Of a stretch of 64,000 nucleotides of DNA, positions 11,801 through 62,800 are shown in pieces. The position numbers and the translations under genes were made by a program. Position 1 is the first letter of the stretch. Each line of letters starts with the position of its first letter. Source of the DNA: Hyalella azteca (lineage: Eukaryota; Arthropoda; Malacostraca; Amphipoda; Hyalellidae); the NCBI RefSeq assembly GCF_000764305.2, contig NW_025946912.1:1-64000 (forward strand), in the 5' to 3' direction. Under the pieces are notes generated by a model that was not told where the DNA came from, did not search any database, and worked only from the letters and a program-made list of their open reading frames with translations.

Positions 11801-14800
11801 TGATGCAGAAACTGACTCAAAGGCTCAAGCAACTGCGCGATCACGAACGAGCGGTGACGCTGGGCCCAAGTTGGATTTTCAGGACGAAGTCTTGGGAGAG
11901 CTGGGGGAGTTTGCTGCTGCGGGTGACACTTCAATATACACCGGGCCTGAGCTCGAGGAAGTGGTTGAAAAAGCTGTCCCTTCTGGTGGGATAAAAGAGG
12001 AAGAAATGAACTTGCTCTCGTCCACTAAAAGTAGGAGTAAACTGCCCACATCTTCGAAGAGAGCGGAAAGAGAGCCACCGAATAATACGTCTAACACCTC
12101 CATAGACGTAAGCTTCGATAAAATGGAAATAATGGCCGAGCCCGATAAAGATAGTGTGCGAATTGCCTGCATTGACACTGACGTCAAAGTCGCTGTCAAA
12201 CTCGAATTCAAACCCGAAAAGGACGCGCTTGTCGAGTCCCTCGCATTGCCGCTGCCTGCAGCACCAAGTCGTGATGTTGATGCACCTATTGATGATAAAC
12301 CTGTGATTAAAGTAGAGAGTGATTGCAAAACCGCGGGTAATGTAGAAACAGACAAGTCGGTGCTTAAGGGTAAAACTGAAGCTGAGCCTGTACTTAAAGT
12401 AGAAACTAACCATGTGAATGAAGTCGAAAACAAAAGTAAAATTGAAAGTAAAAATGATATTTTTGCTGAACCAAAGGAAGTTATTAAATCGCAGACCTCG
12501 AGCCACAGGAGCGACAAACATGACAAGTCGAGCCGACAAGACAAAAGCAAGAGCCATGGCAGCTCCTCGCACGAGAGCTCTCGCCGGCACCACAAGGACG
12601 GTCGGTCCAGCAGCAGTCGCCAGTGTTCGCGGTGCTACAAGAGGAGTAAAATCAAACGCTACAACTGCGGTGTTCAGTGTGTCCTAACTCCAGCATCTGA
12701 TTCATTACCCGATGCCCAGAAACCCGTGGACATCAGTAAAGTGACGAGCAATGCAACGAGCGCTGAGACTAAGCGCAGTGCGTCACGACGCCCCAAAACG
12801 TTGCGTAAGGATCTCAAGTACGGGGACTTGATACACATCGAGACGTACCCTAACGGCGAGGCGTCTGTGTGCCATATGTACGAGGATGAGATGACGCACC
12901 TCACACCTCAGCAGCGGGAAGAAGCTGCCAGAGAGTTCCTCGAGGTCAGACTTTGTTTCATGTTTGAGATATACCTTAAAATCATAATATTCTATTATAA
13001 ATTATCTGTGTGAAAAATTGTATATAAGAATTAATGGGAAATTTCCATTGTGATGGACATTGCCTGTTTAGGATAATTTATTGAAATAACACAATCAGTC
13101 TTGTGAGAACTGCATCGTTGTGTTGGATGAACGGTAACAGTAATAGCATTAAACTCGTTCTTAGATAACAACGGTAACTAAAAAGACCGTCTAAAAGAAG
13201 GCAACTAAAAAGACCGTCTAAAAGACGGTTACTTAAACCATCGTCTGAAAGACGGCAACTAAAACGACCGTCTGAAAAACTGTAACTAAAAAAGACCGTC
13301 TGAAAGACGGCAACTAAAAAAAACGTCTAAAAGACTGTTACTTAAACCAACCATCGTCTGAAAGACGGTAACTAAAAAGACCGTCTAAAAACGGTAACTA
13401 AACAGACTTTGTGACAGGTGGTGTTCGCGGAGGACAGCGCTGGGTACGCGGACCACGTGTGCGGGATCGTGCACGACTCGGCGCACTACATGCCCGACCT
13501 GCTCGACTACTTCAGCGAGCGCCACGCTAACCTCATCGTCAAGGCGGGCGTTATCGGCCATATTGGCCGCAACAGTGACCTCGAGACCTACACTATGCAA
13601 AAGTACAAGGAAGAGGTCTCTGACTAATTTATTGCTGTCCGATAATCTTAACTTGTTGTACAGTATCGAAAAATCGTTGGAATTTTTCTAGGATTAGGTA
13701 CATTTCAGTCCTCCCTTGTTTGTTTTTCAACCTTTCAACTACCGTGGCGAAGTTGACTGCCTGTAAACCTCCTTGTTTGTTATGATTGTGTTTATATTGC
13801 GAAAAAGTGTGGATGACGTTATCAGATAATTATTGTATGTAGAAACATATTTCTTTTTTTATTTGCATTCACTACTTAAGATTACATGATTATAGGAATG
13901 ACACATTATTCGCTCATCACATATAAAAAATGTACATTAAATGACACATTATTCGCTCATCACATATAATGTATGTACATTGAATGAAGGTGGTGTGTCG
14001 CAGGTGTATCGCGGGTACTGCGGTGGCACGTTCCGTGCTGGCCCGCTGCACCAGGTGAGCGTGGTGGGCACGGTGCATGAGGAGGTGGGGGGCTACTTCC
14101 CCCACTTCCTGAGCATGGTGGAGGAGAACCCCTTCCTGCGTCTGGCCATGCCCTGGGGGGAGCTGTCCTCCCTCTGTGGCTCCCCTCCACAGCAGAGCAA
14201 CGACGGCCCTATTGTGTGGATCAGGCCTGGCGAGCAGCTTATTCCTACGGCAGAGCTGGGCAAGAGTCCTGCCAAGAGAAAGAGGTGAGAGCTGGCAAGA
14301 GTCCTGCCAAGAGAAAGAGGTGAGAGCTGGGCAAGAGTCCTGCCAAGAGAAAGAGGTGAGAGCTGGCAAGAGTCCTGCCAAGAGAAAGAGGTGAGAGTTG
14401 GCAGGAGTCCTGCCAAAAGAAAAAGGTGAGAGCTAGGCAAGAGCCCTGCCAAGAGAAAGAGGTGAGAGCTGGCAAGAGTCCTGCCAAGAGAAACGGGTGA
14501 GAGCTGGGCAAGAGTCCTGCCAAGAGTAACGGGTGAGAGCGGTCACTGTAACAGCGGTGTACACGTGTAAAAGTAACCACTTAGTCCTTTCCTTTAACTT
14601 GCTGAAGCACCATCTGCACGAGTTGTTCGTTAAAAAACACGTAGAAAAATATTTTAAACGCATAGAAGAGTTTAATTAATTTGGTAGGTCGTGAATTTTT
14701 CTCGATTATTTTTAGTGTATAGATTGAATAAAATTTCGATAGTCTTTCATTAACCTATAGGTACCTTAATTGTGTTGAATTTATTTGAAAAAGCCGAGTT

Positions 14801-17800
14801 ATCACGGTAGCAATTCCAATTAATTTTGTGTGTTTAGTCTGCGGCTGTCGCCTGCTCTACTTCTGAAGAAGATGCTGCCTAATATGTCGCCGTAACTTAC
14901 TGGTTGCGAAACAGAAGCAATATTATTGTTATGTTTATCATTGGTTGTATAACAGAAGCAATATTATTGTTATTCTTATTATTTATTATATAACAGAACT
15001 GGCATCAACGAGCTGCAGCGTCTACAGTACCTGCCACGTGCGAGCAACGCCCGCGAGATGTTGTTCGAGGACAGGACCAAGGCTCATGCCGACCACGTGG
15101 GGGCAGGGCTTTACCGCCGCACTACTGGTGCTGTCGGTCTGTTCAAATTACCAATGAATAGTTCACTTGAATTATAATGACTAATTCTCTTGATCGTGTC
15201 CACGCCATTCTGCTCATCTGATACTATTAGTTTTTTAACATTTTTTACCTTTTTTATTATTTTTTTTACAACTTCAGCGTGCTATTTATGAAAACCCATT
15301 GATTAAAATACGTCATTTCTATTTCATGCTCAATCATCCGATCATCTTTAAAAATAATAATTCGGTTTTAATAATGTACTGTAGAGATTTAAATAACCTA
15401 AGCTTTATGTGTTCCACATTTAGCTTCATACCTGATGGTTATTGACGCGAGTTTTCTTGAATTATTGTGACCGAATTTTGAACAAACGTGCATAGCTTTG
15501 CCTTGTTTGATTTTTGCTATGAGAACTCAGTCAGCAATTAAACAAGTCTTAACCCTGATAATGTCTAAGAATAAAATGAGAGAAGATTTATTATGAAGGT
15601 CGTAGTTTAAAAGTTTATGGCGTTGCAGGCATCCTGAAGGCGGTGCACTGCGGAGAATCTTACACACACAATAGAATTGTGAAGGACGTCGTGGCGTTCG
15701 ATGCTCACGACTTCGATGAGGTCGTGGAGAAGCTGCAACTCGACCTGCACGAGCCTCCCACCTCGCAGGTAACGGACGCTTCCTTAACATTTGTCAGACT
15801 GCATTATTTTTCAACGTTACACTGTTAGAAAAAACGGCCCCACCGGCGTTCAAGTGGCCGGTCGTCCCGTGAAAATAAACTGTTTCGCCGTTTTTATCAG
15901 ATGTTTTACGGACTTCTAGTGTTAAATTAGAATAAAAAATTTCTAACAGTGTATAATCATGCCGAGTTTGGGTGCAATTGTACCTATGCAATCTTGTATA
16001 GGTTAATTTCATGTCCCCAAGACCTGTGACGTCCCGTGTTGCGCCTCTTTATAGTATTTCTACAAAATAAAATTGTGACCCTGTTGATTTTTGATCAGCT
16101 ATCCGAAAAATTATAAACTTTATTATTAGTAAATGCATGAATATAGTATGTTGAATTTTTTGTTGCTGTTGCGATGAAAGAATTCGTTACTGAGAGACGT
16201 TGTTGTTGCGCAGTGCGTTTTGTGGATCGAGGACGCGAAGCTGAACCAGCTGCGGCGGGAGGGCATCAGGTTCGCCAGGATCCAGCTGTGCGATAACGAC
16301 ATTTACTTCCTGCCTCGCAACATCATCCACCAGTTCCGCACCGTCACCGCCGTCTGCAGCGTTGGTCAGAACTCAGGCTCTTGTTAATTATGCTTCCAGT
16401 TATGATCAATTTCAGGAGCAAAATATTTTTTATGGCAATTTTGATATTTTATTCGTCGATCGCGTTCATTTTGGACTTGTTAATTATTGAAAAGTCGAAA
16501 ATAATGTATGGATAGAACGGGTGCAATGCATGAACAATCGGCAATGCTCATATCTCCGAAAGCTCATATTTCTCGTGCCGCTATTTCTCATCAAGTTTGG
16601 AGTTTCAAGTTGTAATCCAGAATTGTCACCTTGCCATAAACTAAATCTGTCGGCTGCCAGCTGCCACCAGAGTAGCTGAGAGTTTAATGTGTTCTTTTGG
16701 CTCATTTGCTTTAATTTCTTCAAATAACAATAATTTGACTGTCATTTCTTCGCCGTATTGACGAGAAGCTTAATTGTGTCAGACACTAATATTTTTGCCA
16801 ACAAATTGTATGCAATGCCAGAAACGATACATGGATTTTCAACGTTCAGTTTTCGTTTGTTGATTAAATATGGCGTACAAAATGGAAAATGGTGCTACTA
16901 ACAATTCCTTTCATGAATTTATGCGAAAAGTTATTCAGCTGTAAATGATTTTCATGAATTTATTCAGATCATTATTGAACTGTATACGACAGAAAACTGA
17001 CTTTAATATTATATGTTGGCAGCTTGGCACGTGCAGCTGAAGCAATACTACGTGGGTGAGCGCAGCAGCGATGCGCTGGAGGACGGCCTGGAGACTAAGA
17101 TCGAGTACGGCCGCTTGGAGACCACGTCCCGGCCTGACGACGCGCAGGACGACGAGGTCGTCAAGAAGACGGAGCAGTTAACTGACGACATGGAAGGCTC
17201 TAAGGCAGAGCAACCTATCAAGAAAGATCTTAAGAGAAGCAGAAGCAAAGAATCTGCGACAGAAAGCAAAAACAATGACAGTAAAAAGACGTCAGAGAAG
17301 CGTGATGACAAGCCCGAAAGAAGAAAAGATCAAAGTAGTAGAGAGGAGAGCAGAGACAAGCATAAGCACCACAAGCATAAAAAAGAGAAGGATAGAGAAC
17401 GCTCGAACAGAGATGGTGAGCGTTCGAGCAGGGACAGAGAGAGGTCTAAGGACCGAGATAAGAGTGATAAACTTAAAAAGAGAGAGAGAAGAGAAAGCTC
17501 CGTCGATATTGATAGAGTGAAAAAGAAATTAAAATTGGGTAATGACAGCCCTCGTCCACAAGACGGACCTGCTCCGGGCGATGCTGGAACAACGCTTACT
17601 GCGGCTACTGATCTAACGTCCTTGAAGCCCGAGACAGCAACTGAAGACAGTCGGAGCGCTACGGCCAACGTGGGCGCGACCACAACTGATACTACAACGT
17701 CTGACGTTGGTGACACGGTGACAGCTTCTGTCACGGGAACCACCGCTAGCATCTCACCTGCTGTTGGTGTCAGTGCAACTAACGCTGTTGGTACTAGTGG

Positions 17801-23760: not shown

Positions 23761-23789
23761 CAGTGTCATTCTTGAATGACTTCTAATAT

Positions 23790-23953: not shown

Positions 23954-26900
23954 ATGAGCACGCCAAAAAATTCAGAAGGTGCTCCACAGCCTTCAAAAAT
24001 AAGGAAAGTTGATACATCACTGGGTAAGTTCCTTACGGAGAGGAAAAATATTTCTCTTAAACTACCGGCAAGAACTATAGCTACCTTAGGCTTAGTAAAT
24101 AGTAGTAGTAGACTTTACTTATAGAAGTTAAAAATGATGTCTTTCCCACTATAGAAACGCCATACGAGATACGACAAACTTTCTCACTCATTTTCTTCTA
24201 GAAGATTTTAAAAATATGATAAGCTGTTATAGGTACTAAAGAAGTTACTTAGGATTCAATAGGTATAGTGGTTTCAGTGTTTATTACTATTAGGCCGTTG
24301 CTAACTTAGCCAAGTCATTTTTTAAAACCATTTATGCCAGTCTTGTCACTTGTCAGACAGTCAGAACTCTCTTTGAATGGCCTGATGATTTATCTATAAG
24401 TTCTATTAAATTATATTAATGTTCTATGCTTCTATCATTGATTAATCACTGGATCCGGAACATCTTCTGAGGATGGTATTATTGCAGATTAACTACATCA
24501 AAAAAAAAGGGTGTTTTTTTTTTTTAATTATATGTTTTTTGGGGTGTAGATTACAAATCTGAAATCCATTTTTGGCGGTCGGCATCGGAAAACCGATTTT
24601 TTGCAATAATACCGATCACACGTAGCGCTCAACATCTTGAATGAAACTTACCCGTTGCACTGCAACGGGTAAAGAAGACGAAAATGTTACCCGTTGCACT
24701 GCAACGGGTAACATTTTCGTCTTCTTTGTCCATAAATCTGGAGATACATTGCCACATCGAAAGATCACAACCTAACGCCAACTCGCAGGTTGGGTTGGTT
24801 CGCCCAGGTTCCTTTTAGATCAAAATGCTATCTAAAAAAAGGAACTTGGCTGACTTAACCCAACCTAAGAGCTTTTTGTAAAATTTCGATGAACAATCCG
24901 ACCCTTTTTATAAAGGTGAGTGGGTAACGTAAGTTACGTAACCCCCATGTTAGTAAATAAAGGTGAGTGGGTAACGTAAGTTACGTAACCCCCATGTTAG
25001 TAAGTCGCGAAAAAAATCGGTTTTCCGATGCCGACCGCCAAAAATGGATTTCAGATTCGTAATCTACACCCCAAAAAACATATAATTAAAAAAAAACACC
25101 CTTTTTTTTTGGATGTAGTTAATCTGCAATAATACCCTGAGGATTGCTTGAGTTGGGAGTCCTAGCCTCCTAGGGTTCTTAGTTAGCCTAACCTAAAGTC
25201 CAAATTGAGGCAGGATGATAACCCAATGATTGAGAGGTGGTTGTCTTATAAGTTATAGTAGGCAATTAGGCATTGCCATTAGTACCTAGCTAAGTATTAA
25301 CCCTTTCCCAGGCAGACATAGAAATTTGATGAAATTGCAATAGGTATATGATGATTGTACAATTTGTACTTGAAAGTATGACCAATTCTAAGATATAGGG
25401 TAAACGCGGTATATTCCGACACATTAAGGACGTAGAAAAAAATGAATGGGGTAAACACGGTATATTCTGACACATTAATGACGCATTGAGAAATGAAAAA
25501 CTAAAAAAAACCCTATGCGTTGCTCAAGTTCTGTTTGCTTTGCCTGACTCTCAAAACACCGCACGAGGCACCAGCAATGATGAAACGTCACAAAATGTTG
25601 CCATATTTATTTAAAAGCCTTTAGAATGCAAACCAACCAAATCCCTATATTCTGACACTGTGTGTGACTATATTTAGCACGTGGTGAGACGTATTCCGAC
25701 CGCGCTTCAAATTGTACTGATACGTAATTCCGACGTCCACGTGTTCAAATTCCGATCGCTGTGTGAGCTGTATTGGAATACAACACGGCTTTGAATTAGA
25801 ATACTATTGAAAATTAACAGTTATTAAGCTTTTAATTAAGAAACTTTTAATTTTTCCACACAGCTTGGAATGAGCTGTGTGTGTCCAATTCAAGTTGTGT
25901 CATAATTAGTTTTTATGTGTCTAAATCCATTTCTCAACTTAATCATCTATTAATTTATTTACCACTTGAAATCAGCAAATACAAGTATACTTAAAGGATT
26001 CCTAATATATTCACAGACGTATTTAAAAGTCTCAAACCATAATATTCTTTCTACACAAACAGTTTATCACTATTTGGTAGAGCAAGGTCAACTGTCAACT
26101 TTGACACATTTTTCGATGATCTCATTGGGTGGCATGCACCGTCTCTCTTTGGATCTCAACATTTTCCCGCTGGATGGCCCAGACCTAGTGTTTTGGCAGT
26201 AGTTTGACGCGCAAATGTATGACATCACCATTTCAACCATCAACGAATGCATGGAACTAAAACAAAGCTTAATATAAAGGAAACACTAGAGAGGTGTCGG
26301 AATTACCCACGATGTCGGAATATACCGCGTTTACCCTGGCTACAAAAAAAAGCTCTAAATCTGCGCAACTCGAGTTCTGTTTGCTTTACGTCACTCTCAA
26401 AACACCGCACTATGCGCCAACAACAATGAAACGTCACAAACTGTTGCCATATTTATATAAAAGCCTTTAGAATGCAAACCTACCCAATCCATATATTCCA
26501 ACGCTGTGTGTGACTAAATTTGGCATTTTGTGAGATTAATTCTGGCTGTGCTTCAAGCTCTACTAATTCGTAATTCCAACCCTCTTGTGTTCGAATCCCA
26601 ATTGCTGTGTGAGCTGTATTGGAATACAACACAGCTGGGAATTAGAACATTATTAAGTATTGAACACTACTTAATTAAGCTGTTAATTAAGAGCTATTAA
26701 GCTTTTAATTAGGAAAATTTTAATTTTTGCACACAGCTCGAAATGACTAATGAGCTGTGTGTGTCTAATTCCAAGCTGTGTCGGAATTAGTTTTTATGTG
26801 TCTAAAACCGTCTCTTAACTCAATCATCTATTAATTTATTTACCACTTGAAATCAGCAAATACAAGTATACCTAAAGGATTCCTAATATATTCACAGACT

Positions 26901-31992: not shown

Positions 31993-34900
31993 TTATGTCT
32001 CGCTTCCTGCTCGTGCAGTATTAGTAGCTTCAAAAATTATACGCGAATAACAAGCGCACGGGTCTAATACACTTACTTAGAATCATCTATTTAGGAAAAC
32101 AAACCATCACTATGATAAAATTTTTTAAATTAAATGAACGAACTGCTTTATCTTGGCGGATTAACGGAGCATAGCCTTGTCTCCAGGTGTAATGTTTGGA
32201 CTGGTCAAATTTACAGCTCGTTCAAATTAATATTCAATTACTCGGATAACTTTCTATTAGTGTATGATAATATGAATGCACTTGCATTACATTCGCCAAT
32301 GATTGGCACGCACATCGTTGCATTACTCTGCTGTTCGTTGGGAACTTGATGCCAAACATCAACGTTGGGCTCATCGGAAGAATTTGCCGAAAAATGAAGA
32401 TGAAAATCCACCATCTACAAAGGGATCTGAAAGACAGCACAACGGATACAAAAATTGTTTTTAAACTGGAAAAAATAAAGTTCCACCCAATTAAGATACT
32501 GTAATTTTAACCTGCAAATTAAGCCCCGCGCTCTAGATACTCGATGTTTGAGTTGAACAGTAATTTTTGTTTGATAAAAACGTATACATGTATGACCTGG
32601 ACATTTAACGAGATGTTAAAAAAAAAACTTATTTATTTAAGTCATATATTAGATAGGAGGATTCCATTCGATTCGCCGATTGGTCCTCGAATATTCTAAG
32701 AAATCATGTCATCTCTACAAACCGAGTTGTGAAACTCTTGTTTGACCAACACTAAGTGTCGGTAATTAGTGACAGGTACTGTATTGTCCTGTTTGTAAAA
32801 CGACAATTGACGGAGAAGCCGAGCTTCACCTGAGCAACATTATAGAAATGTAGGCTCGGAACTCGTCTCACCTGGCACGAGGCTACTCGCTGTCCCCGGC
32901 TGAATCTCGGTGACGGTGACCTCTTCCTTGCCGCTGCTGTCACGGTACGTGCGACGTTCTTCTATCACCTGCACAGGTAGTTACATCTCGTCATGATTGT
33001 TTATACAGAACAAGGGGGCAGAAAATGGATGATTTATGCAAGGGGAGAGAGAATGGCTGATTTATACAAGGTGACAGAAAAAGGCAGATTTATACAAGGG
33101 GACAGAGAATGGCTGATTTATTCAATGAGACAGAGAATGGCTGATTTTTGAAAGAAGACAAAATGGTTGATATATTTATTTGTTAGTGTTTTTATTCGTT
33201 AAATGGAAACCTGGCAAAGAATAATCAGGAGTTTGGATTTTGTAATTAAGGTTCGGACCAGAAATAAGAAACAATTTTTTTAATAAAGTTAAGTTTCAAG
33301 TATTAAAATGATAATGCACAAATACTTGCATTAATTACTCAACCCTGCATCTAATAAAGTATAGGTAGTGTCTAAATGATGAAACTCTTCAAAAATATCA
33401 TCAAACCGAACTAAATCTGCATCAAAATGAACGAATTCTCTCATTTGGTTTGATCATAAACATTTTAACCGCGGCCTAGAAACGACGTGTTAAACCAAAC
33501 GATCCATTCCGACACTCCCGCTGAGTTCACTATAAGATAGAGAATGTTCTCCCCGCATTCGTACACCATCAGGGCGGACGGTCCTGCTGATGGAGGTGGA
33601 CGTAAAGCTCCGTCGGACTGTGGGTTCATGAGGGATCAGAGGAGCTGGAGCGCCGCTGTAGCCTGGCCCATCCTTCAGGAGTTCCTGCAGGTTATTACGG
33701 GGCCTGCAGAGAGTATTAAAACATAGAAATGGTTTCACGAGATCGAGCGTATCATTTCAACTACAAACTGAGGCACACAAACAAAGAGCAATAACACTCG
33801 GGAAAAAACTAGTATATCTTCGAGAGCAGTAAAAAATTAAATGCCCGCCTAGCATTGAAGGAGATGATAGAAATGCTGACCTACTTGGCGCACATAATAA
33901 TATGATTCAAAATAAAAACAGATCACGTCTCTTCACATATTTCCTAGACATTTCATCAATAAAACTATAATCTCAAGCATTGACGTTCCTCGGAAGAATA
34001 ACTTGTGAACGAAATTTTGCCAACTAGAGGTTGTTAATTTATTCATAATTCGTAGGCATGAAATTTGGACGCGACGATGTATTTTATTCTATTTTTAAAC
34101 AAACTCCATTATATCCGCTCATTAATTTCTATCAATAGTTGAAAGTTTGTTCATCGCTGAGTTATCATTATCGAGGCTACTGGACTTTTCATGGATTAAA
34201 TACCATATAGGCACTATTCATAGAAGCACTAAGATACCATATGAACTAGAACAAAAAGAAGTCCGAGATGAGTTTTCTTGTCAAATTACATTGAATGAAC
34301 AAATTACTTGATAACACGTCTTGGTCAAAACACTATTCTCTGCCTTGGCTCAACACTGGATACATGCTACTCATCGTTCTATTTCAGAATGCAAACAAGA
34401 AATAATAATAATAATAATAAATGAATAAATAACAGAGCATATCATTAAGTTCATAAGTGCTTATTGTTGCATGAAAAGAAGTTGAAAAGCTGAGCAGTTA
34501 TTCCTGAACTCTTAAGTTTTGAAAGCCTTTAATCAAGATGCAAACAAATAAAATTTCCCGTAAAAATACTCACTGTTTATCTAAATCTTGGTCTTCTTTC
34601 AGTAGATTCTCCCTGGCAGGTGGAGAATGGAGCCCATATCCTGTGCGTTAAAAGATGTGATGTTGGAAAACCGTTGCTTACAATTATAATAGGTGCGGTA
34701 GTTGGCAAGAGCTGCGAAATTCTCAAATTCAACAGATAGTGAGTAACCTTAATGGGGAATTATGATCAAAATGATAGTTATTCCTAAAATACTTCGTTAA
34801 AGAAATGTCTCAAAAAATATAACTCAGTACTCACTGCAGTGAGTGACAGAGAGCGCATTTTCTCGTAGACGAAAACATGAAGTCACGGACGGACAGACAG

Positions 34901-40507: not shown

Positions 40508-40509
40508 TA

Positions 40510-41334: not shown

Positions 41335-41585
41335 ATCGCTCTGAACTGCTGCCAGTTACAGAGCAGCGTCGGTCAGCTCTAAGCACCGCGTCGGCAGAGT
41401 ATCGTCAGTCAGCAGTGAGCCCCAAGCAGCGTCATTCATAACTGAGCCACGGGTAGGCGAGGCATCGTCAGTCAGCACTGAGTCCAGGTCAACAGAGCAG
41501 CGTCATTAAGAATTGAGTCCCACGATGACAGAGCAGCGTCAGTCAGCACGTCAGTCAGCACTGAGCACAGGGTTGGCGTAGCCCT
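41335..41585. repeat. Degenerate minisatellite at the 3' end of the SLC22 gene
   Basis: About seven imperfect units of 30-45 bp on the theme CAGAGCAGCGTCAGTCAGCACTGAG. The last coding codons and the TGA stop of the transporter (41553-41551) lie inside the array, so the C-terminal residues VLSAD are encoded by a repeat unit. Confidence 0.8.
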
Positions 41586-44500: not shown

Positions 44501-47500
44501 GACTGCAATAATGGCCTCGTTCAAACGCTCATACGCGTTCGGGCTGGTCAAATTCTCAACGGCCAGTTGTGGCCGTTAGTACTGGGTTGCAAAGCTGGCC
44601 TCATGTAAACGCGCACTTTTTCTTGGCTCAGCAAAATAGATAGACTGTAAATGTTGCAGAATTTATTCATTTCTACAACTATGACACTTTTGACAGACGA
44701 AGAAGGTAGTACGACTAAACGGTCATTTGTATTTTAATCGAAAAAAACACCACAGCTACATACCTGTTTTAGTATCTTAAGCAGAAAGACACAAAACACT
44801 CACTGGATCAAACAATTATTTTTATTACTGAAGCAGTAACTACTAAGCTAGTGCTGCAATACTACTGCTAAAACTGTGCAGTGACTCCCACCAGTGAAGA
44901 GGATATAGATACCAGTCTCATAACTCCCACAAATTAGTATTTAGTAAAGCTAGGCTGCATTAGCAAGCACGACTTACTAGCAGAACGTCAGTAGGATGGT
45001 GCGTCTCCTCAGGACGGGCGTCTGCAGGAGCTGGTAGGCGCCGTGGTTCGGCATTCGCTTTTTCGATATTTCTGCACACCGAAGCAAACACATTCCGTTA
45101 TTCTCGTTCTAGAATTAATTTAGAACATGGCCGATAGGTACGAGTTTCACGAATTAAATTCAAAAAGTGCCAATAGCTCCCATAATAAATAACTTTCATA
45201 ACAATAGCATAACGATAAAAGCAATGAGCAAGCATCTCAGTTTCAGAAGCAATATGATAAAGACTAAAGATAAATTCTCGAGTAATATTAGAAATAAGCA
45301 ATGAATGTAAAGGAGGACCTGAGAGCTGATCATGCAGCTTGGGCGGCACGTCGCGGCCGTTGACACGCGCTACACGCGCCAGCAACGCGTGCGCCTCGTC
45401 CACGCGCCCACGCGTCAGCAGCCAGCGTGGCGACTCGGGGATAAGGCTGATAGTGAAAGTAGAAATAAATTGTAAAATTATTCAATGAGTGATATTCACC
45501 TTTTAAAGGTTAGAACCACAGCACCCATGTAAGAATCAATTTAGTACAGTTTGTGGTGAATGACTTCATAGCAGAAGTAGGTGCTGATTTTTTCACAGTG
45601 GAAAGAGTGGAATAAGTTCAACGGAAGAGCGTTTTTTTATAATTTCTCAAGATCATTTCCGAATAAAAAGAGGGAAATTAGTAAAAACTATGTACGTGAT
45701 AACATACATAGTCCCTATTTGCATTTTAAAACCAGAATGTCATAGGCCCATAAAATCGCTTGAAATCAAACTTGAAACTCAATGCAAACACAGTTCATCC
45801 AGAACATTACGATAGACTTATTCGACAATTAGCACCGCCATACTGAAAAAAGCCTCCCAATATATGTGAGGGAAATAAGCTCCTTCGGAAATAATGTCGC
45901 ATCTACTGTATCATGTATGTAATATACAGTCCTGGGGAGGATATGACGATATGAGTGCCTAGTGACGATATGAGTGCCTAGTGACGATATGAGTGCCTAG
46001 TGACGATATGAGTGCCTAGTGACNACGATATAAGTGCCTAGTGACGATATGAGTGCCTAGTGACGATATTAGTGGCTAGTGACGATATGAGTGCCTAGTG
46101 ACGATATTAGTGCCTAGTGACGATATTAGTGGCTAGTGACGATATGAGTGCCTAGTCAAGATATAAGTGGCTAGTGACGATATGAGTGCCTAGTGACGAT
46201 ATGAGTGGCTATATGAGTAGCTCACAGCGCGGCAGGGAGGTAGAGCAGGAAGGGCGTGCTGATGATGATGCTGAGGATGCGGTGGCTGCGGCTGAGCCAG
46301 GCGAGCAGCGCCAGGACGCACGTGCCCGCCGACCAGAACATGTAACTGATGGACGTCACACGCGACCTCCACGTGCTCGACACCAGCTCGTACGCTGCAA
46401 TATCGAGCAAATATTGTAATTATCTTCTTTATTTGGCAAGATTCACCAATAGAGAACCGTTTGTGCAGCTTCAACATCTCGCCAAAACGGTGCCAGTTTA
46501 CTGCAACTACGTATTTATTAGCATGTAGAGGATGAATACTGTATTCACTCTGCAGTCTGTCCTGATGACACTGTGAACGATAAACTTCGTTCACTATTAG
46601 CCGTGTTCATTTTATCTCGTGTGCATACCGAAAGCCACATCTAGCGTAGCCGCCTTGGTAACATTTATGTCGGACCTTACTTGGGCGGTAGCGACGTAGT
46701 GCAAGGTCAGGTCTGAGCGGCTGTGAGTCAGGTAGTCAGTCGTGTCCCGCCAGCCCTACAGTGGGGCATACCTGTTCTCATCTCACTCCGCTCTGTCGAC
46801 TCTCAGCTATTCCTTACTCTAACGCTGGAGTCGTGGCTGAGCCGTGGAAGATTAAGTAAACTGCTCCTCAATAATGTACCTGATGTCACTCTAGTTTAAT
46901 TTTAACCGTGCCAGTTTTTTAAACTGTGCTTTGCTGAAATATAACTACGTTGTATCCGTGTTACCGAAGTTGTAATGAACATCCCAGTGCAATAAAGTGC
47001 AATTGAACTTTGTACAAGATAGTTACCGACGTTTGGCCGTAAGGGCTCTGATCATTCTGAAAGTTTAATAGTTGCAGCCGGCGTCCGGTGACGACACAAG
47101 CATGCAAACTACAACTTGAAGCATGTCCAATAAGAATGCGCGATCTTAATCTATAAATCATGTAAGATTAACCGTTCAGTAACGTTTATTTCATTATGCA
47201 AATCAAACTTCACAGCGTGAACAATATCGCTTTCTTAGCATCGCAACAGATACAACCGGAAGCAGTCCTTTAACAGAGGATTAATAAACACGTGAATAGT
47301 AGAAGTCGGGACCGACTAGTTATTTTCTTCAAAAGTTTTAATTCATAAGTATTAAAGTATTAATTTAAGTATTGAAGTACTAATTCTGACCACAAGTAGT
47401 CGAGATCGGAGGCTCTCCAACCATTTTTTGCACTTAAAATTCATAATGATGAATCCATTACTCCATCTTCTAGCATAACCTCTGAATCATTAGACTGCGA

Positions 47501-50500: not shown

Positions 50501-53500
50501 AAATTAAATAAATTACTTCATAAACTGAATTAATTGTACGTCATAAATTAAATGTATCACACAAAAAATATATCCTATCTTTCTTATATTATACAGATGG
50601 ATTCATGAACTGATCTTAATTCATCTAAGGTTATATTTTACAAGAAACAAGCTTGAAATTGACCCCTTCATTTCTGGGTTTCCTAAATGGCAACGTAAAC
50701 TTCGACAAACTATCGTAAATGATAAATAATAATAATAATAAAAATAGCGGTTTCAGTATTTAGTAGGCCGTAGGCCGTAGGCCTGTCGCCATGGCAGAAT
50801 ATTCAAATTATTTTGCGGTCTCGAACTTGCAACTCACTGCTACAATTCTGCTGTGCTTAACCGCCCAGCCACCTCGCCGATTCTGATCAGAAACTGGCGC
50901 ACAGAGCTGGGATCGAACCCGCGCCTCTCTGCGCCAATCTTGGTACTCTGAACTTTAACCACTGGGCAATGATCCTCATAGAATAACCAATTTGAGGAAA
51001 GCTCTAGGTTTTCCTTAAAAAAACTAGAAATATGCATATTCTTACTCCCATAAATTAAAAAAAATTAGAATACATATTAAGAAATTCAAAGGTTAGTGAG
51101 GTCAGTACGAATAGGAATGCTCACTTGTGTTTTGTTTATACTAGAAATATTTGTCACGTCTTGAATGATTCTCAGTATCTACTTGACTAATTGAAAGGGT
51201 GATAGTTTAATGAAACGATCAGCTGAACACACAATCTGCATCAATGTTAAATAATATCAGCAAACGCCATTAGAATAATCATGACGATGATATCGTCCGA
51301 GGAATGAGGTCTGTGAAAGAGGTGTCGCCGCAGGTGCTGTGAACAGGTGTGGTACAGTCGGTCAGATGTGCTGTGTGGTACAGTCGGTCAGATGTGCTGT
51401 GTGGTACAGTCGGTCAGATGTGCTGTGTTGTACAGTCGGTCAGTACAGTCGGTCAGATGTGCTGTGTGGTACAGTCGGTCAGAGGTGCTGTGTGGTACAG
51501 TCGGTCATAGGTGCTGTGTGGTACAGTCGGACAGAGGTGCTGGGTGGTACAGTCGGTCAGATGTGCTGTGTGGTACAGTCGGTCATAGGTGCTGTGTGGT
51601 ACAGTCGGACAGAGGTGCTGTGTGGTACAGTCGGTCAGGTGTGCTGGGTGGTACAGACGGTCAGATGTGCTGGGTGGTACAGTCGGTCAGATGTGCTGGG
51701 TGGTACAGTCTGTGAGATATATTGCACACGAAGTTTTTTGTTAATTCAGTCGTCGTGCTCACACATTCTTATCAAGGGCCTAAGCAGCACACAAAGATAC
51801 ACAAAATGAAAAATATAGCGTATTTTAACAAGTCTTCGGCAACATTAACATTATTCACAAGTTCACAACTATTTTATTATTGTTATTATTATTCACGAAA
51901 AGTTTTCCTATCAGTCCAAACATCATGAATCGACTGAAGGAATTAAAAATAAATAAGCAGGATCGATCTCTCATCCATATTCGTACGTTTCTGATTAGCT
52001 TTTTTTGCAGGACTGAGTTTATGAAAAGGCTAATAATTAGTTAAAGATGCAAAAGAACGACACAGATTTTTCACTGGTCTGTTAATGCAGGTTTCATAGC
52101 AGATGTGAGATCAGAAAACGTGGACCGTCTTCGATTACACAGCTGCGCCACAGCACGAGTGTGAAGATGTGAGACTTTCTCGTGATATTCATATTTTTTC
52201 CGCTATGTTATATGACCTTTCCGTGTGTCACTTGTTTCTTATCAGTTATGTCATTGACGAAGATGTGTTATTTCAAGAGAATCAATTGAGTTTCTAGTGA
52301 GTGCTAGTTTTTGCAGCAGGTTATTCCTCTATAGCAAACTCAATCATGATCATAGCCAGTGTTATCTGTAAGAGTTTGTACGGTATTTTGATATAGCTTC
52401 GAAGGTTGGTGGGTTTTGGAGCTTCTTTCCTCAGTGTTGTTGAAGTTCCAACATGACACCTAATTAGATAAGTGTGTGTTTAATTAAGCTCAATTATTAT
52501 TCTTTGCGTGCAGGGCAGAGAGTGGCTGAGTCACATCAATATCCGTCGCTCCATCTATATAAATTTGCTTCAGATTTGTTTTCAGCTTTCAAAAGATAAA
52601 TACAAGTATGGACCCCCATAATCGGATCTTTCAACGTACAATCCAGGATTAAATTTCACTGACATCCACCATATACCGTTGTTGTTCATCAACGCGAGCA
52701 CGTGTAAACGAAGCCATTGGGTGAAATTTTCATATTATGCTTGAAAAATATAATAGACAGTAATTGGAATGAGAATACAGTTAACCACTTTCGGAGTCAT
52801 ATTCACAAATGGAAAATACCGGATAAGCAAAACGCGCTCTGAAAAATCAGTTTTGCAAGGAAAACCTGGTTCCTATGGTAAAAATTAACAACTGCGTAAA
52901 CAAACGGACATCACACTTATTGGAAAAATGAACCTATCAATAATAGGAAGGAATTGAGTATAACAACGATTGAGTAGCGATGAGGAGGAGAAGCCTCGCT
53001 ACTGGATAAACAACAAACTGGATAAACAAACTACTGGAGGATAAACAAAACATTTAGGAATGTAACAAACGCACCAACTATGGTGAGAATTAAACTTTTC
53101 ATACAGGAGAATGAAGTCCAAATAACAACGGGAAAAATAAATCTAAGTATTACGAGGAATAACAAATTTGACAATAATCACAGCAAAGCTAACAGCGATT
53201 GCTTGCATATTATATTTGACCTTGAGCGTGTCTCCTACACTTAATTATTGCTCGCTTTTACTTCACTTTTTGTTAACAACTTTCAGCATTTATGGACAGA
53301 TAGCATTAGCCTAAGAATGTTGAAGCTCTCCCACACTTGACTTCGCGACCGTTTTCTTTATTGCTCAGTTCATAACCCCTGCATTATCTAATTTAGAAGT
53401 GAGCTCAGGTGCTGGCATGTGTAAATAGAGTCCCAAGCTGTAGGCTTTAATGGTTCATCACGATTGCCAACAAGACTGATGATCTCGCACCGGTTGACAA

Positions 53501-55897
53501 TTCAAGCGGCCATCACCCACCTGGGGATGGTGAGGTTGCTGAGGCGGGTTGAAGATGGTGCATGTTGCTAGTACCCACCTGGGGATGGTGAGGTTGCTGA
53601 GGCGGGTTGAAGATGGTGCATGTTGCCATCACCCACCTGGGGATGGTGAGGTTGCTGAGGCGGGTTGACGATGATGCATGTTGCTACCACCCACCTGGGG
53701 ATGGTGAGGTTGCTGAGGCTGGTTGAAGATGGTGCATGTTGCCATCACCCACCTGGGGATGGTGAGGTTGCGCCACTGGAGGAGGTCCAAGTCCTCAGGT
53801 TTTCCAGGCACCAGGCACCAGTGGTCAGGGGAATCTACGAGCAAGATGGGCACAAGCGCCACCCAAGCTACCATGAAGTCCAGAGGCGCCAGAAACGCCC
53901 ACAGCAGCAACTGCTGGTAGCGCCCGCACGACCCAACGCTCTCCAGCACCTGCATCGTTACAATGTCGGGAAGAAGAGCTAGTCTTGAATTACCGTGAGC
54001 TATTTAATTATATTATCATGTTATCTAGTTGTCATGTCTACGAGTTGAGCGTTAGAATACGGAATAAAAGTCTTCAGTTAACGCGAGTTATGTCATCATG
54101 TTATCTATGTATAGTTATGCTGTCTACTGGGTGAAAGTTAGTACACGAATTTGACAACAATAATGAGTGACATTCATTTTTTTGCACTTTATCCATGCAT
54201 CGTTTGTCTTCTGAGAAATCAAGATTCTTTATACCTAATTAATTATTGCGAATTATCGCAGAGGGTTCCATGAGTTCGTCAGTCAAGTTAAATATGATCA
54301 TTACAAGTTCACAAGACACCAATATCAGTAGAGAAAGTGCTTTTGAAAAGTAAGAAAAAATCTGTATAACCTGACTAGACTTGAGAGGTCGTTTAAGGTG
54401 GACGTGCGAGTCAAAAATGTTTATTTAGTAACTCGCCAAATGGACTGAGATACTAAAAAATCTATCGCACATTTTAAAAAAAGATAAATACATAGACATT
54501 TGTTTATAAACATTCATTGGGATTCATGAAAATACACGTAATTAGCGAAATATGACTAAAAGCTCAAATTCTATACGAATAAGGATAATGTACGTATCAG
54601 TGTTTTTTTTAGATATTTTTAGTGTTAGGGAAAATATTTCTAGTGTTTTTCCCAAATATTAATCGCAATCTCCCTAAGTTGAGTACGAGGCGAAGTCGCC
54701 AGTCAATGTTGGCGGGACTTCCTCTAGTTTAGACGGCAACACGACGTCAGTTAAAGCGTAAGTGGGCAGTAAAGATGTGTCAATACAATTGTTGTAATCT
54801 CCACTTAATTTATCTTGAGTCGGCAAGATGTTATAAACAACTATGTAAAAGCCAATGAACGATACGCATTCGCGATGCAAACATTCAAGGGAATAAATTT
54901 CATTTACCGTAAGCTGAAAATGTAAGCATTTGGCAGAGAAAATTATAGAGATTACGTTGCCTTATCCAAGTTGAGAAGCGCTTTCGTCATTTACGCCTAA
55001 CGACGTTAAATTGCTCTCTATGGTGGAGTTGCCCTAGCTGGTTTCGGCGTCACTTCTACATTTTGTAGAATATGTTGTGGCTAAAGTTTGCAATCAGAAT
55101 AATAACTGAAATGTCGACTTCAAATTAAATATCAACGAACTTTAAAAAAGAAATTAATCCGCACAAACGAAGGAAATACAGAACTTCAATTTTTAAAATT
55201 ATTTGCATCAATATACTGATTCCTTTCCGACAAGTGGAGCAAAAAAAAAAAAAAAAAAAATCAGCGGATAAAACATAATTTTTAATTTCATTTATCATTA
55301 GAAATTAAATGGAAAAAAATTAACTAAAATTTCAAGTTTGAACACAAGAAATGCAGGATATTTAAATTTGGAAAGTGTGTATGAATTGATAATCATTAAA
55401 GATGACCATTTCGGTACCATTGCAGCCCTAAAAACTCGAACCCTACAATCATAGTTCTAACCAGTAGTTTCAGGATTATTAAATTAAAGTGCAGTAGCCG
55501 CTGAGTGGCGAATGCCGAATCGTGTGTCATTGGCGAATACCGACCGGTGTTAATGGCACGTTATCTTGAGCTGGCATCAGATATTTGCAACTAATAATAA
55601 TATACACGAGCATTCTTGAAATGATCATTACAGCACAACTGCACGAGCTCAGCGAGAAGTGAAATTCGCAGGACAACATGCAGGAAACGCAGCAACATAC
55701 GGAAGTGCACCTGCCGCCATTTGTATCCGCAATCCTTTGTTACTTAGTTCGTAGAAAATAACTCTAATCATAGGTGCAGGTATATCGAGTCTCGACTACC
55801 TGTGCCGCTGCTCTCAAACTTTGCATGAACTTACCGATTCAAACAACGTGTCTTCTTTCTCGTCTTCACTCTTCTTGGCAGGCGCTGTCGCTGTCAT
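41551..55897 (-). CDS. SLC22-family organic cation/carnitine-type transporter (MFS)
   Basis: Twelve coding exons on the minus strand: 55897-55835, 53949-53753, 49784-49690, 49172-49010, 47682-47528, 46394-46226, 45446-45319, 45071-44978, 44283-44075, 43414-43227, 42594-42434, 41671-41551. All phases agree and give about 580 aa, the usual SLC22 length. SLC22 proteins move organic cations, zwitterions or anions across the plasma membrane. Family hallmarks: TM1 followed by a large extracellular loop with N-glycosylation sequons (NLT, NIS, NIS) and conserved Cys; TRQDWVCDN; the MFS signature NPLSDLFGRR after TM2; [16 protein letters not shown]; twelve expected TMs; GELYPT before TM11; [19 protein letters not shown] near the C-terminus. 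The final exon adds GRKFWQLGG and a polar tail. The stop directly after SYK in exon 11 is avoided by the donor GTGAGT. Substrate cannot be told; arthropod relatives include Orct and the carcinine transporter. Confidence 0.92.
41868..41998 (-). repeat. Diverged tRNA-derived SINE fragment
   Basis: On the minus strand it shows an A-box-like TGGCGCTGTGGTTA, a B-box-like GGTTCGATCC and the segment following it, matching the two better SINE copies at 47845-48090 and 50725-50967. Confidence 0.6.
45950..46222. repeat. 19-bp minisatellite starting at the SLC22 exon 6 donor
   Basis: About fourteen units of GACGATATGAGTGCCTAGT (plus strand). The minus-strand donor GTGAGCTACTCATAT at 46225 looks like a diverged first unit (the unit reads GTCACTAGGCACTCATAT), so the array begins at the 5' splice site. 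A single N at 46024 marks an assembly uncertainty inside the array. Confidence 0.85.
47845..48090 (-). repeat. tRNA-headed SINE, copy 1 (SLC22 intron 4)
   Basis: Read on the minus strand, it begins with an A box (TGGCCCAGTGGTTAAAG) and a B box (GGTTCGATCCC), continues through a second tRNA-like stretch (GGTTAAGCACAGCAG, GTTCGAGACC) and ends with GGCGACAGGCCTACGGCC and an (ATT)n tail. This is the layout of a pol III SINE. It matches the copy at 50725-50967. Confidence 0.85.
50725..50967 (-). repeat. tRNA-headed SINE, copy 2 (SLC22 intron 2)
   Basis: Nearly the same sequence as copy 1, including the B box GGTTCGATCCC and the ATT-repeat tail. The outermost head (first bases of the A box) is missing and GGCCGTA in the tail is duplicated. 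Confidence 0.85.
51336..51718. repeat. 26-bp minisatellite in SLC22 intron 2
   Basis: About fourteen units of GTGCTGTGTGGTACAGTCGG plus TCAGAT. Open reading frames through it (51339-51809 and 51347-51715 on +) come only from the repeat. On the plus strand the left edge reads CGCCGCAG-GTGCTG, donor-like, but no exon is supported there. Confidence 0.9.
51720..53500. other. SLC22 intron 2, unremarkable part
   Basis: AT-rich intronic sequence between two minisatellites. No supported exon or known repeat. Confidence 0.5.
53505..53790. repeat. 58-bp minisatellite spanning the SLC22 exon 2 donor
   Basis: Four full tandem copies at 53521-53752 repeat the last bases of exon 2 (minus strand CAACCTCACCATCCCCAG) plus the donor GTGGGT and the following intron start. 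The real junction is at 53753/53752. Unit length is exactly 58 bp (starts at 53521, 53579, 53637, 53695, 53753). All copies keep CAG-GTGGGT. Confidence 0.93.
53950..55834. other. SLC22 intron 1
   Basis: AT-rich intron with a poly-A run at about 55241-55260. No supported exon. The ORF at 54674-54880 is not supported by any family feature. Confidence 0.55.
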
Positions 55898-55982: not shown

Positions 55983-55989
55983 TAAAAAC

Positions 55990-57904: not shown

Positions 57905-58226
57905 ACACGAATGAGACCTCTCGTTCACGCATCTCTTACACGAATGAGACCTCTGCTTCACGCACCTCTTACACGAATGAGACCTCTGCTTCACGCACCT
58001 CTTACACGAATGAGACCTCTGCTTCACGCACCTCTTACACTGTCTCTTATACACATCTAGATGTGTATAAGAGACAGGNACGCACCTCTTATACGAATGA
58101 GACCTCTGTTTCACGCACCTCTTACACGAATGAGACCTCTGCTTCACGCACCTCGTACACGAATGAGACCTCCGGTTTACGCACCTCTTACACGAATGAA
58201 ACCTCTGCTTCATGCATCTTTCCCTC
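57905..58226. repeat. 33-bp minisatellite interrupted by an adapter
   Basis: About nine units of CACGAATGAGACCTCTGCTT plus CACGCACCTCTTA. The middle is broken at 58040-58079 by a sequencing-library adapter and an N, so the copy number is not reliable. On the minus strand each unit contains CGT-GTAAGAG, a donor-like site. Confidence 0.9.
58040..58079. other. Tn5/Nextera mate-pair junction adapter and N: assembly artefact
   Basis: The 19-base Tn5 mosaic-end sequence CTGTCTCTTATACACATCT is followed immediately by its own reverse complement (58059-58077), then G and an N at 58079. This is the circularisation adapter of Nextera mate-pair libraries and is not genomic. It marks a misjoin or gap closure inside the surrounding minisatellite. 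Confidence 0.98.
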
Positions 58227-58978: not shown

Positions 58979-58979
58979 G

Positions 58980-59224
58980 TGTCATGGTAAGAAGTGAGTC
59001 ATGGTAAGAAGTGTGTCATGGTAAGAAGCGTGTCATGGTAAGAAGTGTGTCATGGTAAGAAGTGTGTCATGGTAAAAAGTGTGTCATGGTAAGAAGTGTG
59101 TCATGGTAAGAAGTATGTCATGGTAAGAAGTGTGTCATGGTAAGAAGTGTGTCATGGTAAGAAGTGTGTCATGGTAAGAAGTGAGTCATGGTAAGAAGTG
59201 TGTCATGGTAAGAAGTGAGTCATA
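58980..59224. repeat. 17-bp GTAAGA minisatellite downstream of MINDY4
   Basis: About fourteen units of GTCATGGTAAGAAGTGT. On the plus strand every unit contains ATG-GTAAGA, a near-consensus 5' splice site, and the left edge is preceded by TTTCAG-GCGCACCTGGTGTC. No exon can be confirmed. Confidence 0.9.
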
Positions 59225-59864: not shown

Positions 59865-62800
59865 CTAGAGGAGCGGGTCAGTGCTGTGCCAGTCGACGGT
59901 GGCAGAGGGCCACTTGGTCCTGATGCAGTGCTCCAGGGGCGGCACTAGCGTCGTGCTGCTGCAGCCTTCATCGCTTCCAAGCTCTGAAATCAAATACAAT
60001 TTTATGTAGTTGATGTACCATTTGATGAAAGTTTTGTTTAATACTGAAAATAAATAGAAAAAGACTGCATTAATCAGATGTTATCCGCACTTAGAAGGAA
60101 GGAGCCATATGTAGCTAATCTGTAGCAATAACACGTCACTCATTTTTGGCATGACAAATCTAGTCTTAATTGAAGCAAAGTTCCGTAGCAATAACACGTC
60201 ACTCACTTATTAGCAAGACGAATCTCGTCTTAATTGAAGCAAAGCTCCGTTACAATAACACGTCACTCATTATTGGCATGACGAATCTCGTCTTAATTGA
60301 AGCAAAACTCCGCAGCAATAACACGTCACTCACTTATGGTGAGACGGATCTCGTCCTCCTGCAGGGCGAGGCCGTCGTAGTAGTACATATCGAAGGAGGT
60401 GTCGGGGGGGTCGTCGGAAGTGATGGCAGGGTTGCGGCAGAAGAGACACGTGTAGTGGCTCTCGCTGCACACCACCCACACCGGGTACAGGGGTGACTTC
60501 AGGTGATGACCCACCTGCCGGGGTGTCATGTATGTATCACTCAGGGGAATGAGGGAGCATTTGTCGAAATAATGATGCACTTTTTACCTGCCTCACGTGG
60601 GTCATCTTGGCCCAGTTTGGGCCGTCAAAAAGACGTATCAGTGCTATACTTACACCAAGTGTGCTACTGTTTGTACAATCTTACCCATTCATTTAAACTT
60701 TAGAATTAGTGCATAAAATCACGTGGTGTCAATTATTAACCGTAAGCATTATCTTCAAGATTGGTTACTCGTGGATAACATTTTCAGCCTGCAAACAAAG
60801 AGGTATATATAATTCACTCCGGAAAGGTTGCTTTAACAGAATATGCCTAATAACCAAGGGTATTTACAGAACAACTTATTTTCAGAACAACTAAGCAACT
60901 AATTTCTTCTATGCATAACATTAACATGATCATTAATTATAATTTCACTAGAATATTTATAACCCTCGTACTTGGAGAAAATCAACAGGGTTCGCACGTT
61001 ACTTCACGTCACTAATTTCTTTTCGATACTCCATTTACCCCCAGGAAAAAAAATCACGTTTCGCCTTCCATTTCATTGCAAAATTTAAAGGATGGCTGAC
61101 TCCAGTTCCGAATTTAACTCTATACTCGTTTTGTGAAAAATAAAAATTAATTTGTGGGGCACTGTGGTGCGAGGGTGTTTAAAAAAATGATTTAAACGCA
61201 GCGAAGTACTAGTGATATGTTCTGACGATGAATAATGCCCGAGATTTTAGCGTGACTTTGACATGACTCGCTTTACAGGAGCCATAGTGCTCGTCATGAC
61301 TCACTTTACAGGAGCCGTAGTGCACGTCATGACTCGCTTTACAGGAGCCGTAGTGCTCGTCATGACTCGCTTTACAGGAGCCGTAGTGCTCGTCATGACT
61401 CACTTTACAGGAGCCGTAGTGCTCGAAGAGCGACAGGAGGCCGACGTCAGCGCGGTGATGGACGCCCCGGAGCGTCAGCCTGGCCACGCTGGCGCTGATG
61501 TCCTCCTGCACGAGGCTGGCGCGGGGCGGCGCTATCGTGTCGCCTGAACCATCACGGCCTTAAATTACTTTCAGTAATAACAGTAACAATACTTATGTAT
61601 TGTTCACTCCACAAAGTTTACTCGACAAAGTTCACTTTCTGTTCTCTATACAGCGATTCCGGGGCAACTAAAAACTTGTTAACGCCAGGATAGAGTCGGG
61701 GCAAATAGACCTTATATATAGTCTTCATGATCTAAGGTTGAGGGTCAATTTAAACCTAGTCCACACTATCAAAGTTTGGGCGGATGGTAAAACCTAGTTT
61801 GCATTATCAAAGGTTTCAGGGGCAACTAATACCTAGTCCGCATAGGAAAATATTTTTTTAACGCGATCTTTTAGTTGGAAAACCAATTGGAGTTCGCGCA
61901 CAATTGAGAAAACATTTTGATTTTTATTCGTTTCTGAATCAATGACATTAAAATTTTACCGAACATCTTTCCCATGAAAATGAATAAGTATTTCGTATTC
62001 CATATTTGCTTATAATCACCAAATACAGAAGAAAAAACAACAACACAATTCACTCCGAAATTAAGTGTGTCTTAGAGCTACGTTGTCGCTCAATACCCAA
62101 TCTTAGGAATGCATTCATATCTAATACGACACCTGCAAACAACTGATGGATTGCGAAACGAGAAAGCATAGTTTTTTAGAATCTCTCAACTGCGAAAAAA
62201 GCGGGCTAGGAAATGTTTCCTCTTCAGTTCCTGACCCAACACTGTACACCTCTGGTCGCAAATATGGAATATTTGATCGCTTTAAAGACCATATATTTTG
62301 GATAATAATGTTCGTGAAGTTGATTCAGCTAGTCTTTGTTTAGATTGTGGTGGCGATCACATAAAAAGTTTATTATTATTGACCACGATCACTACTTTTT
62401 AGGAAGCTGATCATAAGAGGAGCGAAGTTACGAGAGAGAGAGATCAGTATACGCATGGTTGAATTATTAATTCATATTAATTAATATTAATTAATTCAAC
62501 CATGAGTATACGTGCTGGCTGTCTCTCTCTAACCTTGATATATCGAATTCTGAGAACCCATGACGGCCAGCATACGAATTCCATGGAAAATCTCCTAGAT
62601 ATAAATTTATTTTCGTGGCTCTTTGCACTGTGATTTGCAGTGTAATATTACTCAATCACATTCTCCCCATAAAACTGATCATTCAAGCAGGACATTTTAC
62701 CCGACGGTAACAGAGAAATAACTTAAGTTTTCATTATAAATATATTAGGCTGTCTGAGATAGTCTGTAGCAGTTGTTAATGAAGGAAAATAATTACAGTT

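What the first reader, a model, noticed from the sequence alone, without database searches (positions are those of the whole stretch)
14251..61430. Minisatellites whose repeat unit is the 5' splice junction, in unrelated genes
In RSBN1 (exon 3), SLC22 (exon 2) and MINDY4 (two successive exons) the tandem repeat unit consists of the exon end, the splice donor and the intron start. In SLC22 exon 6 the array begins at the donor. That is 5 of about 32 introns resolved here, while no array crosses a 3' splice site (the nearest stop about 12 and 30 bases short of acceptors). Unit lengths differ (35/36, 58, 63, 33, 19 bp) and sequences are unrelated, so this is not one transposon; it looks like a recurrent, donor-centred duplication process. 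Such arrays multiply U1-binding sites and could drive intron lengthening, buffer donor loss or create isoforms. The mechanism is inference.
Basis: partly seen in the sequence, partly recalled or inferred. Interest (0 to 1): 0.88.

Follow-up and report, generated by a model that had tools for sequence, protein, structure and literature searches.

The report
Minisatellites straddling splice donors in Hyalella
In a stretch of genome of the small freshwater crustacean Hyalella azteca, four short tandem repeats sit exactly across the end of an exon and copy its splice signal several times, a kind of structure that had been described in amphioxus under the name 'mirage'.

Summary
The core observation is real. 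Four tandem arrays straddle homology-supported 5' splice sites: RSBN1 exon 3 (35/36-bp units), SLC22 exon 2 (58 bp) and two MINDY4 exons (33 and 63 bp), 4 of 28 introns resolved. The fifth claimed case (SLC22 exon 6) starts 14 nt inside the intron and carries no good donor. One 2.2-copy RSBN1 array runs 2 nt past an acceptor, so 'no array crosses an acceptor' is not quite right. The window is Hyalella azteca (amphipod). Donor overlap exceeds random placement (P 0.0003 to 0.046 by threshold, post hoc). Whether donors differ from acceptors is unsettled: Fisher P=0.11, placement test P 0.0002 to 0.058. Some arrays also abut acceptors, hinting at exon-edge clustering. Spare donors show no detectable constraint; in 3 of 4 arrays using one changes the frame or meets a stop, against the backup-donor idea. 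The phenomenon is known: 'mirages' in amphioxus. No crustacean case appeared among the listed titles of my searches. Genome-wide enrichment and RNA usage could not be tested.

The parts
14252..14540 (+). RSBN1 exon 3 donor-spanning array, 35/36-bp units, 8 donor copies, all GT (the first, at 14285, is the exon end)
14910..14998 (+). RSBN1 41-bp x 2.2 array ending 2 nt past the exon 4 acceptor (last intron base 14996)
53509..53771 (-). SLC22 (carcinine transporter) exon 2 donor-spanning array, 58-bp units, 5 identical CAG|GTGGGT donors (first intron base 53752)
60122..60355 (-). MINDY4 donor-spanning array, about 63-bp units, copies GT, AT, GT, AT at the donor (first intron base 60333)
61262..61425 (-). 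MINDY4 donor-spanning array, 33-bp in-frame units, copies GT, GC, GC, GT, GC at the donor (first intron base 61403)
45944..46211 (-). SLC22 intron after exon 6: 19-bp array starting after 14 nt of intron, not spanning the donor (first intron base 46225)
13171..13407 (+). RSBN1 intronic array ending 10 nt before an acceptor (last intron base 13417)
13897..13987 (+). RSBN1 43-bp x 2.1 array ending 16 nt before the exon 3 acceptor (last intron base 14003)
33010..33175 (-). 28-bp array ending 41 nt before an acceptor (last intron base 32969) of a gene read by eye as HAX1-like

Best explanation
These are mirage-type minisatellites: ordinary local tandem duplications, later expanded by slippage or unequal exchange, whose array starts lie 19-33 nt inside the exon. 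The spliceosome keeps using the first, exon-proximal donor, so the mRNA is unchanged and all later copies are carried as intron. They persist because a duplication crossing a donor is nearly neutral, whereas one inside coding sequence or over the acceptor's polypyrimidine/AG region usually damages the mRNA. Shown: the position, the first-copy exon end, and the absence of detectable constraint on spare donors. Inferred: RNA usage, the mutational origin, and that exon edges attract arrays in this genome generally.
For: Exon joins at the first copy agree with orthologous proteins and, for SLC22, with the named H. azteca protein exactly. 33, 19, 22 and 22 nt of exon lie in the arrays. Spare donors seem free to vary: 6/36 donor columns vs 27/112 others; 5 of 9 MINDY4 copies lack GT (3 of these are GC, which can still be a donor). 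8 of 12 genic arrays with score >=100 span or lie within 20 nt of a splice site, expected 1.9-2.6. Same anatomy as amphioxus mirages, where the authors judge regular splicing undisturbed (section read).
Against: Tolerance alone does not predict more arrays on donors than in intron interiors, yet 4 of 7 strong genic arrays are on donors (expected 0.36-0.60), so a mutational or selective bias, or luck, is needed too. The donor-minus-acceptor excess has P down to 0.0002 under random placement. The exon-edge idea rests on few arrays: three of the four edge arrays that do not span a donor are in RSBN1, and the acceptor-edge excess alone is not significant. RSBN1 and SLC22 keep GT in every copy. No RNA evidence. 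Only one clear junction-flanking microhomology is visible by eye (AGAGC at the RSBN1 array).
Confidence: 0.62

Rival explanations
1. A donor-centred mutational process: something about a used 5' splice site (for example RNA:DNA hybrids with U1-bound nascent RNA, or a repair-prone sequence) makes the junction duplicate recurrently.
For: 4 of 7 strong genic arrays span donors, P 0.0003-0.0018; donor-minus-acceptor excess P 0.0002-0.0009 for the same arrays; 4/28 donors vs 0/28 acceptors in the alignment test.
Against: The 4/28 vs 0/28 contrast has Fisher P=0.11; some arrays abut acceptors; units of arrays away from donors are not enriched for donor-like motifs beyond dinucleotide shuffles (39/500 to 139/500 shuffles reach the score for the four highest-scoring ones).
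Confidence: 0.18
2. The enrichment is chance plus selection of a striking window: H. azteca simply has many minisatellites, and four fell on donors here.
For: Hypothesis formed on the same 64 kb; with all 26 genic arrays and the looser null P=0.046; only 28 introns examined; two of the arrays are in one gene.
Against: Sets of higher-scoring arrays (>=100) give P 0.0003-0.01, and the junction alignment separates 4 donors cleanly from all others.
Confidence: 0.2
3. Positive selection for repeated donors: extra U1 sites strengthen exon definition, suppress premature polyadenylation, or act as spare donors.
For: RSBN1 keeps GT in 8 of 8 copies and SLC22 in 5 of 5.
Against: MINDY4 arrays lack GT in 5 of 9 copies; donor columns no more conserved; for 14 of 18 later copies use would shift the frame or meet a stop.
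Confidence: 0.05
4. Assembly artefact: repeat units multiplied or misplaced by the assembler.
For: A 38-bp stretch that I recognise from memory as a Nextera junction adaptor, near an N, lies inside a neighbouring array at 58040-58077; another N lies in the 45944-46211 array.
Against: The window has only those two Ns, neither in the four donor arrays, and the adaptor string occurs nowhere else; copies differ by their own variants; short-read assemblers usually collapse repeats (general knowledge).
Confidence: 0.03

Closest known systems
Amphioxus 'mirages' (Adh3; globins BflGb6/BflGb9; PGBD5; troponin C)
   Same: Minisatellite-like tandem copies of an exon-intron boundary in unrelated genes, unit lengths from tens to about 160 bp, many but not all copies with splice signals, regular splicing reported as undisturbed (PMC3087553 section 16 read; PMC3902484 passages). 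The original Adh paper (Canestro 2002) is not held and was seen only as a citation.
   Different: Here in an amphipod crustacean; all four clear cases are at 5' boundaries, whereas amphioxus shows both 5' and 3'; no RNA or polymorphism data.
Internal tandem repeats at exon-intron boundaries of human genes in segmental duplications (PMC2812944, passages read)
   Same: Minisatellite units averaging 30 bp, some at exon-intron boundaries, that can change splicing.
   Different: Those vary between paralogues and produce intron modifications; here no paralogue or variant was compared.
Dual-specific splice site arrays of polyubiquitin UBC (PMC10809524, passages read)
   Same: Tandem array with one splice-site motif per unit.
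   Different: There the same motif serves as donor and acceptor and intron length is a multiple of the unit; here the introns' own acceptors lie 138, 456, 747 and 3724 nt beyond the arrays (coordinates).
Intron gain by tandem duplication of AG|GT sites (Rogers model, as cited in PMC3087553 section 16; other papers seen as listing and abstract starts only)
   Same: Tandem duplication containing a splice-site core; could be raw material for it.
   Different: No new intron is seen here; existing introns are extended. Whether the introns are old was not tested.

Membership tests
mirage (boundary-spanning minisatellite) | tandem units span an exon-intron boundary | tested here: met
   4 of 28 donors
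mirage (boundary-spanning minisatellite) | units of unrelated sequence in unrelated genes, tens to about 160 bp | tested here: met
   units 33-63 bp; cross-locus scores at most 14 where self scores are 22-40
mirage (boundary-spanning minisatellite) | many but not all copies carry splice signals | tested here: met
   GT kept in 8/8, 5/5, 2/5 and 2/4 copies
mirage (boundary-spanning minisatellite) | regular splicing not disturbed | tested here: inconclusive
   the H. azteca SLC22 protein record uses copy 1; no RNA seen
mirage (boundary-spanning minisatellite) | both 5' and 3' boundaries affected | tested here: inconclusive
   0 of 28 acceptors by alignment; one 2-nt overlap by TRF
mirage (boundary-spanning minisatellite) | copy-number polymorphism or somatic instability | not testable with these tools
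   single assembly
Introner-type or transposon-borne repeats | one shared sequence at many loci | tested here: not met
   donor segments do not match the first 250 nt (at most) of the other 27 introns: maximum 14 in 756 comparisons; the rest of the genome was not searched
dual-specific splice site array (UBC type) | intron lies within the array, with the repeat motif as both donor and acceptor | tested here: not met
   own acceptors lie 138-3724 nt beyond the arrays (coordinates)
intron gain by tandem duplication | intron absent from relatives and bounded by duplicated AG|GT | not tested
   no gene structures of relatives were available; only proteins were compared

The most novel reading that the evidence does not exclude
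In Hyalella (perhaps amphipods generally) an ongoing duplication process directed at exon edges, donors above all, has turned a sizeable share of donors (4 of 28 here) into mirages, which lengthen introns and supply raw material for intron gain, making this group a second, independent mirage lineage after amphioxus.
Probability: 0.2. Interest if true: 0.75.

Novelty: new member of a known kind. Interest (0 to 1): 0.42.

Why it matters
Mirages were discussed in amphioxus as a possible route to new introns. A crustacean with 4 of 28 donors in such arrays would be an independent case, in a laboratory model animal, and would let one test whether exon edges are duplication hotspots, how the spliceosome chooses among 4-8 similar donors in a row, and whether such arrays feed intron growth. 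If the rate does not hold genome-wide, it is an ordinary curiosity.

Tried and rejected
Donor-like motifs in arrays away from donors: the four highest-scoring (51347 on the strand opposite to SLC22, 24910, 57905 minus, 58979 plus) are not beyond dinucleotide shuffles, so dropped. The 58-bp SLC22 unit as a 29+29 dimer: 495 of 2000 shuffles score as well, rejected. Constraint on spare donors: none detected; the RSBN1 rows in that alignment are out of register by 1 nt at their 5' end, which inflates the 'rest' count there. Rfam (gathering threshold) and tRNA scans of the window: nothing. Pfam named NAP (SET), MFS/Sugar_tr (SLC22) and MINDY-3/4; nothing for the two RSBN1 pieces or the HAX1-like piece; the name HAX1 is by eye and recall, RSBN1 by named homologues. 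Introns of SET, HAX1-like, RSBN1 and MINDY4 were placed by hand from the reading frames and the tblastn pieces, not by a spliced aligner. What was left out before counting: of 51 TRF rows I entered 41 (the ten left out describe arrays already entered), merged to 34 loci; 7 of 34 lie outside the five gene spans and, by the coding-overlap limit, 3 more (35 nt) or 1 more (60 nt) were dropped, leaving 24 or 26. In one search the translation after each join runs past the next exon, so only its first part is meaningful. The genome-wide test asked for could not be run. On re-checking I lowered the best explanation from 0.66 to 0.62 and raised the donor-centred rival from 0.14 to 0.18, because the donor-minus-acceptor placement test and the weakness of the acceptor-edge excess had been left out.
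Full report
What the window is. The SLC22-like gene on the minus strand matches all 580 residues of a protein named 'carcinine transporter [Hyalella azteca]' (P0241): 12 exact exon blocks and, at each of the 11 junctions, exactly one GT/GC-AG solution. RSBN1 is 82% identical, over 81% of the query, to a snow crab protein. The window is therefore Hyalella azteca, an amphipod (taxonomy). Genes placed: RSBN1 (+, open frame from 8811, stop at 17947), a SET/NAP gene (+, about 28.1-29.5 kb), a HAX1-like gene (-, about 32.9-36.3 kb, name by eye), SLC22 (-, 41554-55897) and the 3' part of MINDY4 (-, 59868 to the window end). 28 introns have both ends placed.

What is there. 51 TRF rows reduce to 34 array loci (41 rows entered and merged). 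Four straddle donors: RSBN1 exon 3 (8 copies at 35/36-bp spacing), SLC22 exon 2 (5 at 58 bp), MINDY4 (5 at 33 bp) and MINDY4 (4 at 63-64 bp). Each takes in 19-33 nt of exon; the intronic part makes up 6% to 61% of its intron. In every case the exon joined at the first donor reads into the next exon in agreement with orthologues: RSBN1 [14 protein letters not shown]22 TIPR|KEDGSF, MINDY4 GSCK|VGHH and LTI|KLGS (the last join has no close match beyond the junction in the two MINDY4 orthologues aligned, which differ there in length). Aligning each junction to its own following intron separates these 4 donors (scores 22-40) from the other 24 (at most 11) and from 756 cross-comparisons (at most 14); of 28 acceptors none exceeds 10.

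The SLC22 exon 6 array starts after 14 nt of intron and has no good donor motif. An RSBN1 array of 41 bp x 2.2 copies crosses an acceptor by 2 nt, by TRF; it is not significant in the alignment test (37 of 756 controls as high). Two further arrays end 10 and 16 nt before acceptors and one 41 nt before.

Is it more than chance? Placing arrays at random in gene spans with limited coding overlap gives 0.36-1.38 donor-spanning arrays; 4 are seen. P runs from 0.0003 (7 arrays with score >=250) to 0.046 (26 arrays, looser null). The question was raised by this very window. Donors against acceptors: the donor-minus-acceptor excess under placement has P 0.0002 to 0.058 over the twelve settings, while the plain contrast of 4/28 with 0/28 is P=0.11 two-sided, 0.056 one-sided. 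Exon edges: 8 of 12 genic arrays with score >=100 span or lie within 20 nt of some splice site (expected 1.9-2.6, P 0.0002-0.0009), and of the 8 that do not span a donor, 4 do so (expected 0.54, P=0.0012). Three of those four are at acceptors, all in RSBN1, two of them with barely more than two copies; the acceptor-edge excess on its own is not significant (3 of 12, P 0.064-0.125; 1 of 7 strong arrays, P 0.46-0.57). So the pattern could be exon-edge clustering with clear crossing only at donors, or a donor bias with a few acceptor neighbours; 28 introns cannot decide.

How it most likely works. A tandem duplication across a donor leaves the first donor where it was, with its own exon behind it; later copies fall into the intron. 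Using a later copy would hit a stop at once in RSBN1 (7 of 7) and soon after the junction in MINDY4 63-bp (3 of 3, two of which no longer have GT), change the frame or meet a stop in SLC22 (4 of 4), and add 11-44 in-frame residues in MINDY4 33-bp (4 of 4, three of which are GC). The donor nonamer is identical in 5 of 5 SLC22 copies and 5 of 8 RSBN1 copies, so the choice of the first must depend on position or exon context (inference). Spare donors show no detectable constraint (6/36 vs 27/112 variable columns, P=0.49). This fits neutral carriage better than backup function, although RSBN1 and SLC22 keep GT in every copy. At acceptors, a duplication would set extra AGs and disturbed polypyrimidine tracts upstream, which is less tolerable (general knowledge, inference). 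Tolerance does not by itself explain why donors are hit more than intron interiors, so a mutational bias, or luck, is still needed.

What is known. [quoted passage not shown] the authors judge from Adh3 data and globin RT-PCR that regular splicing is not disturbed, and one gene has 6 and 3 units in two haplotypes; the term comes from Adh3, units 10-72 bp there (PMC3087553, section 16 read). PGBD5 and troponin C are further cases (PMC3902484, passages). Human boundary repeats (PMC2812944, passages) and UBC dual-specific arrays (PMC10809524, passages) are related but differ. Searches that could have shown a crustacean report listed none by title (lists capped at 12-30 of up to 4,405 papers, one search found no paper). 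In the Daphnia tandem-repeat paper the words splice and exon-intron do not occur in the held text; Daphnia new introns are linked to short direct repeats from break repair, and the word tandem does not occur there (PMC4202315, passages). The library lacks most subscription papers, so absence is weak.

Verdict. A real, mirage-type set of arrays in an unexpected animal; not a new kind of system; the donor-centred mechanism is possible but unproven.

Noticed in passing
58040-58077: Two 19-mers back to back, reverse complements of each other and recognised from memory as a Nextera mate-pair junction adaptor, sit near an N (58079) inside a 33-bp array: adaptor left in the assembly.
   Followed up: partly
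57905-58216 (-): 33-bp array preceded by an acceptor-like TTTACAG and with two donor-like motifs per unit; might be a noncoding exon, for example 5' UTR of SLC22, with a donor array of its own. Speculative.
   Followed up: partly
58979-59223 (+): 17-bp array with ATG|GTAAGA in nearly every unit on the strand opposite to MINDY4.
   Followed up: partly
24910-25003: Perfect 47-bp direct duplication with the donor-like AAAG|GTGAGT near the start of each copy; I placed no gene there.
   Followed up: no
61262-61425 (-): MINDY4 33-bp units stay open in frame; splicing at copy 4 (GT) would insert 33 residues in the MINDY domain.
   Followed up: partly
P0001 versus window 28368-29391: The Chionoecetes opilio RSBN1 model appears fused to a SET/NAP protein; in the window the two are separate neighbouring genes.
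   Followed up: partly
47883-48180 and 50767-51003: Two similar GC-richer stretches with related translations, by eye probably copies of one dispersed repeat.
   Followed up: no
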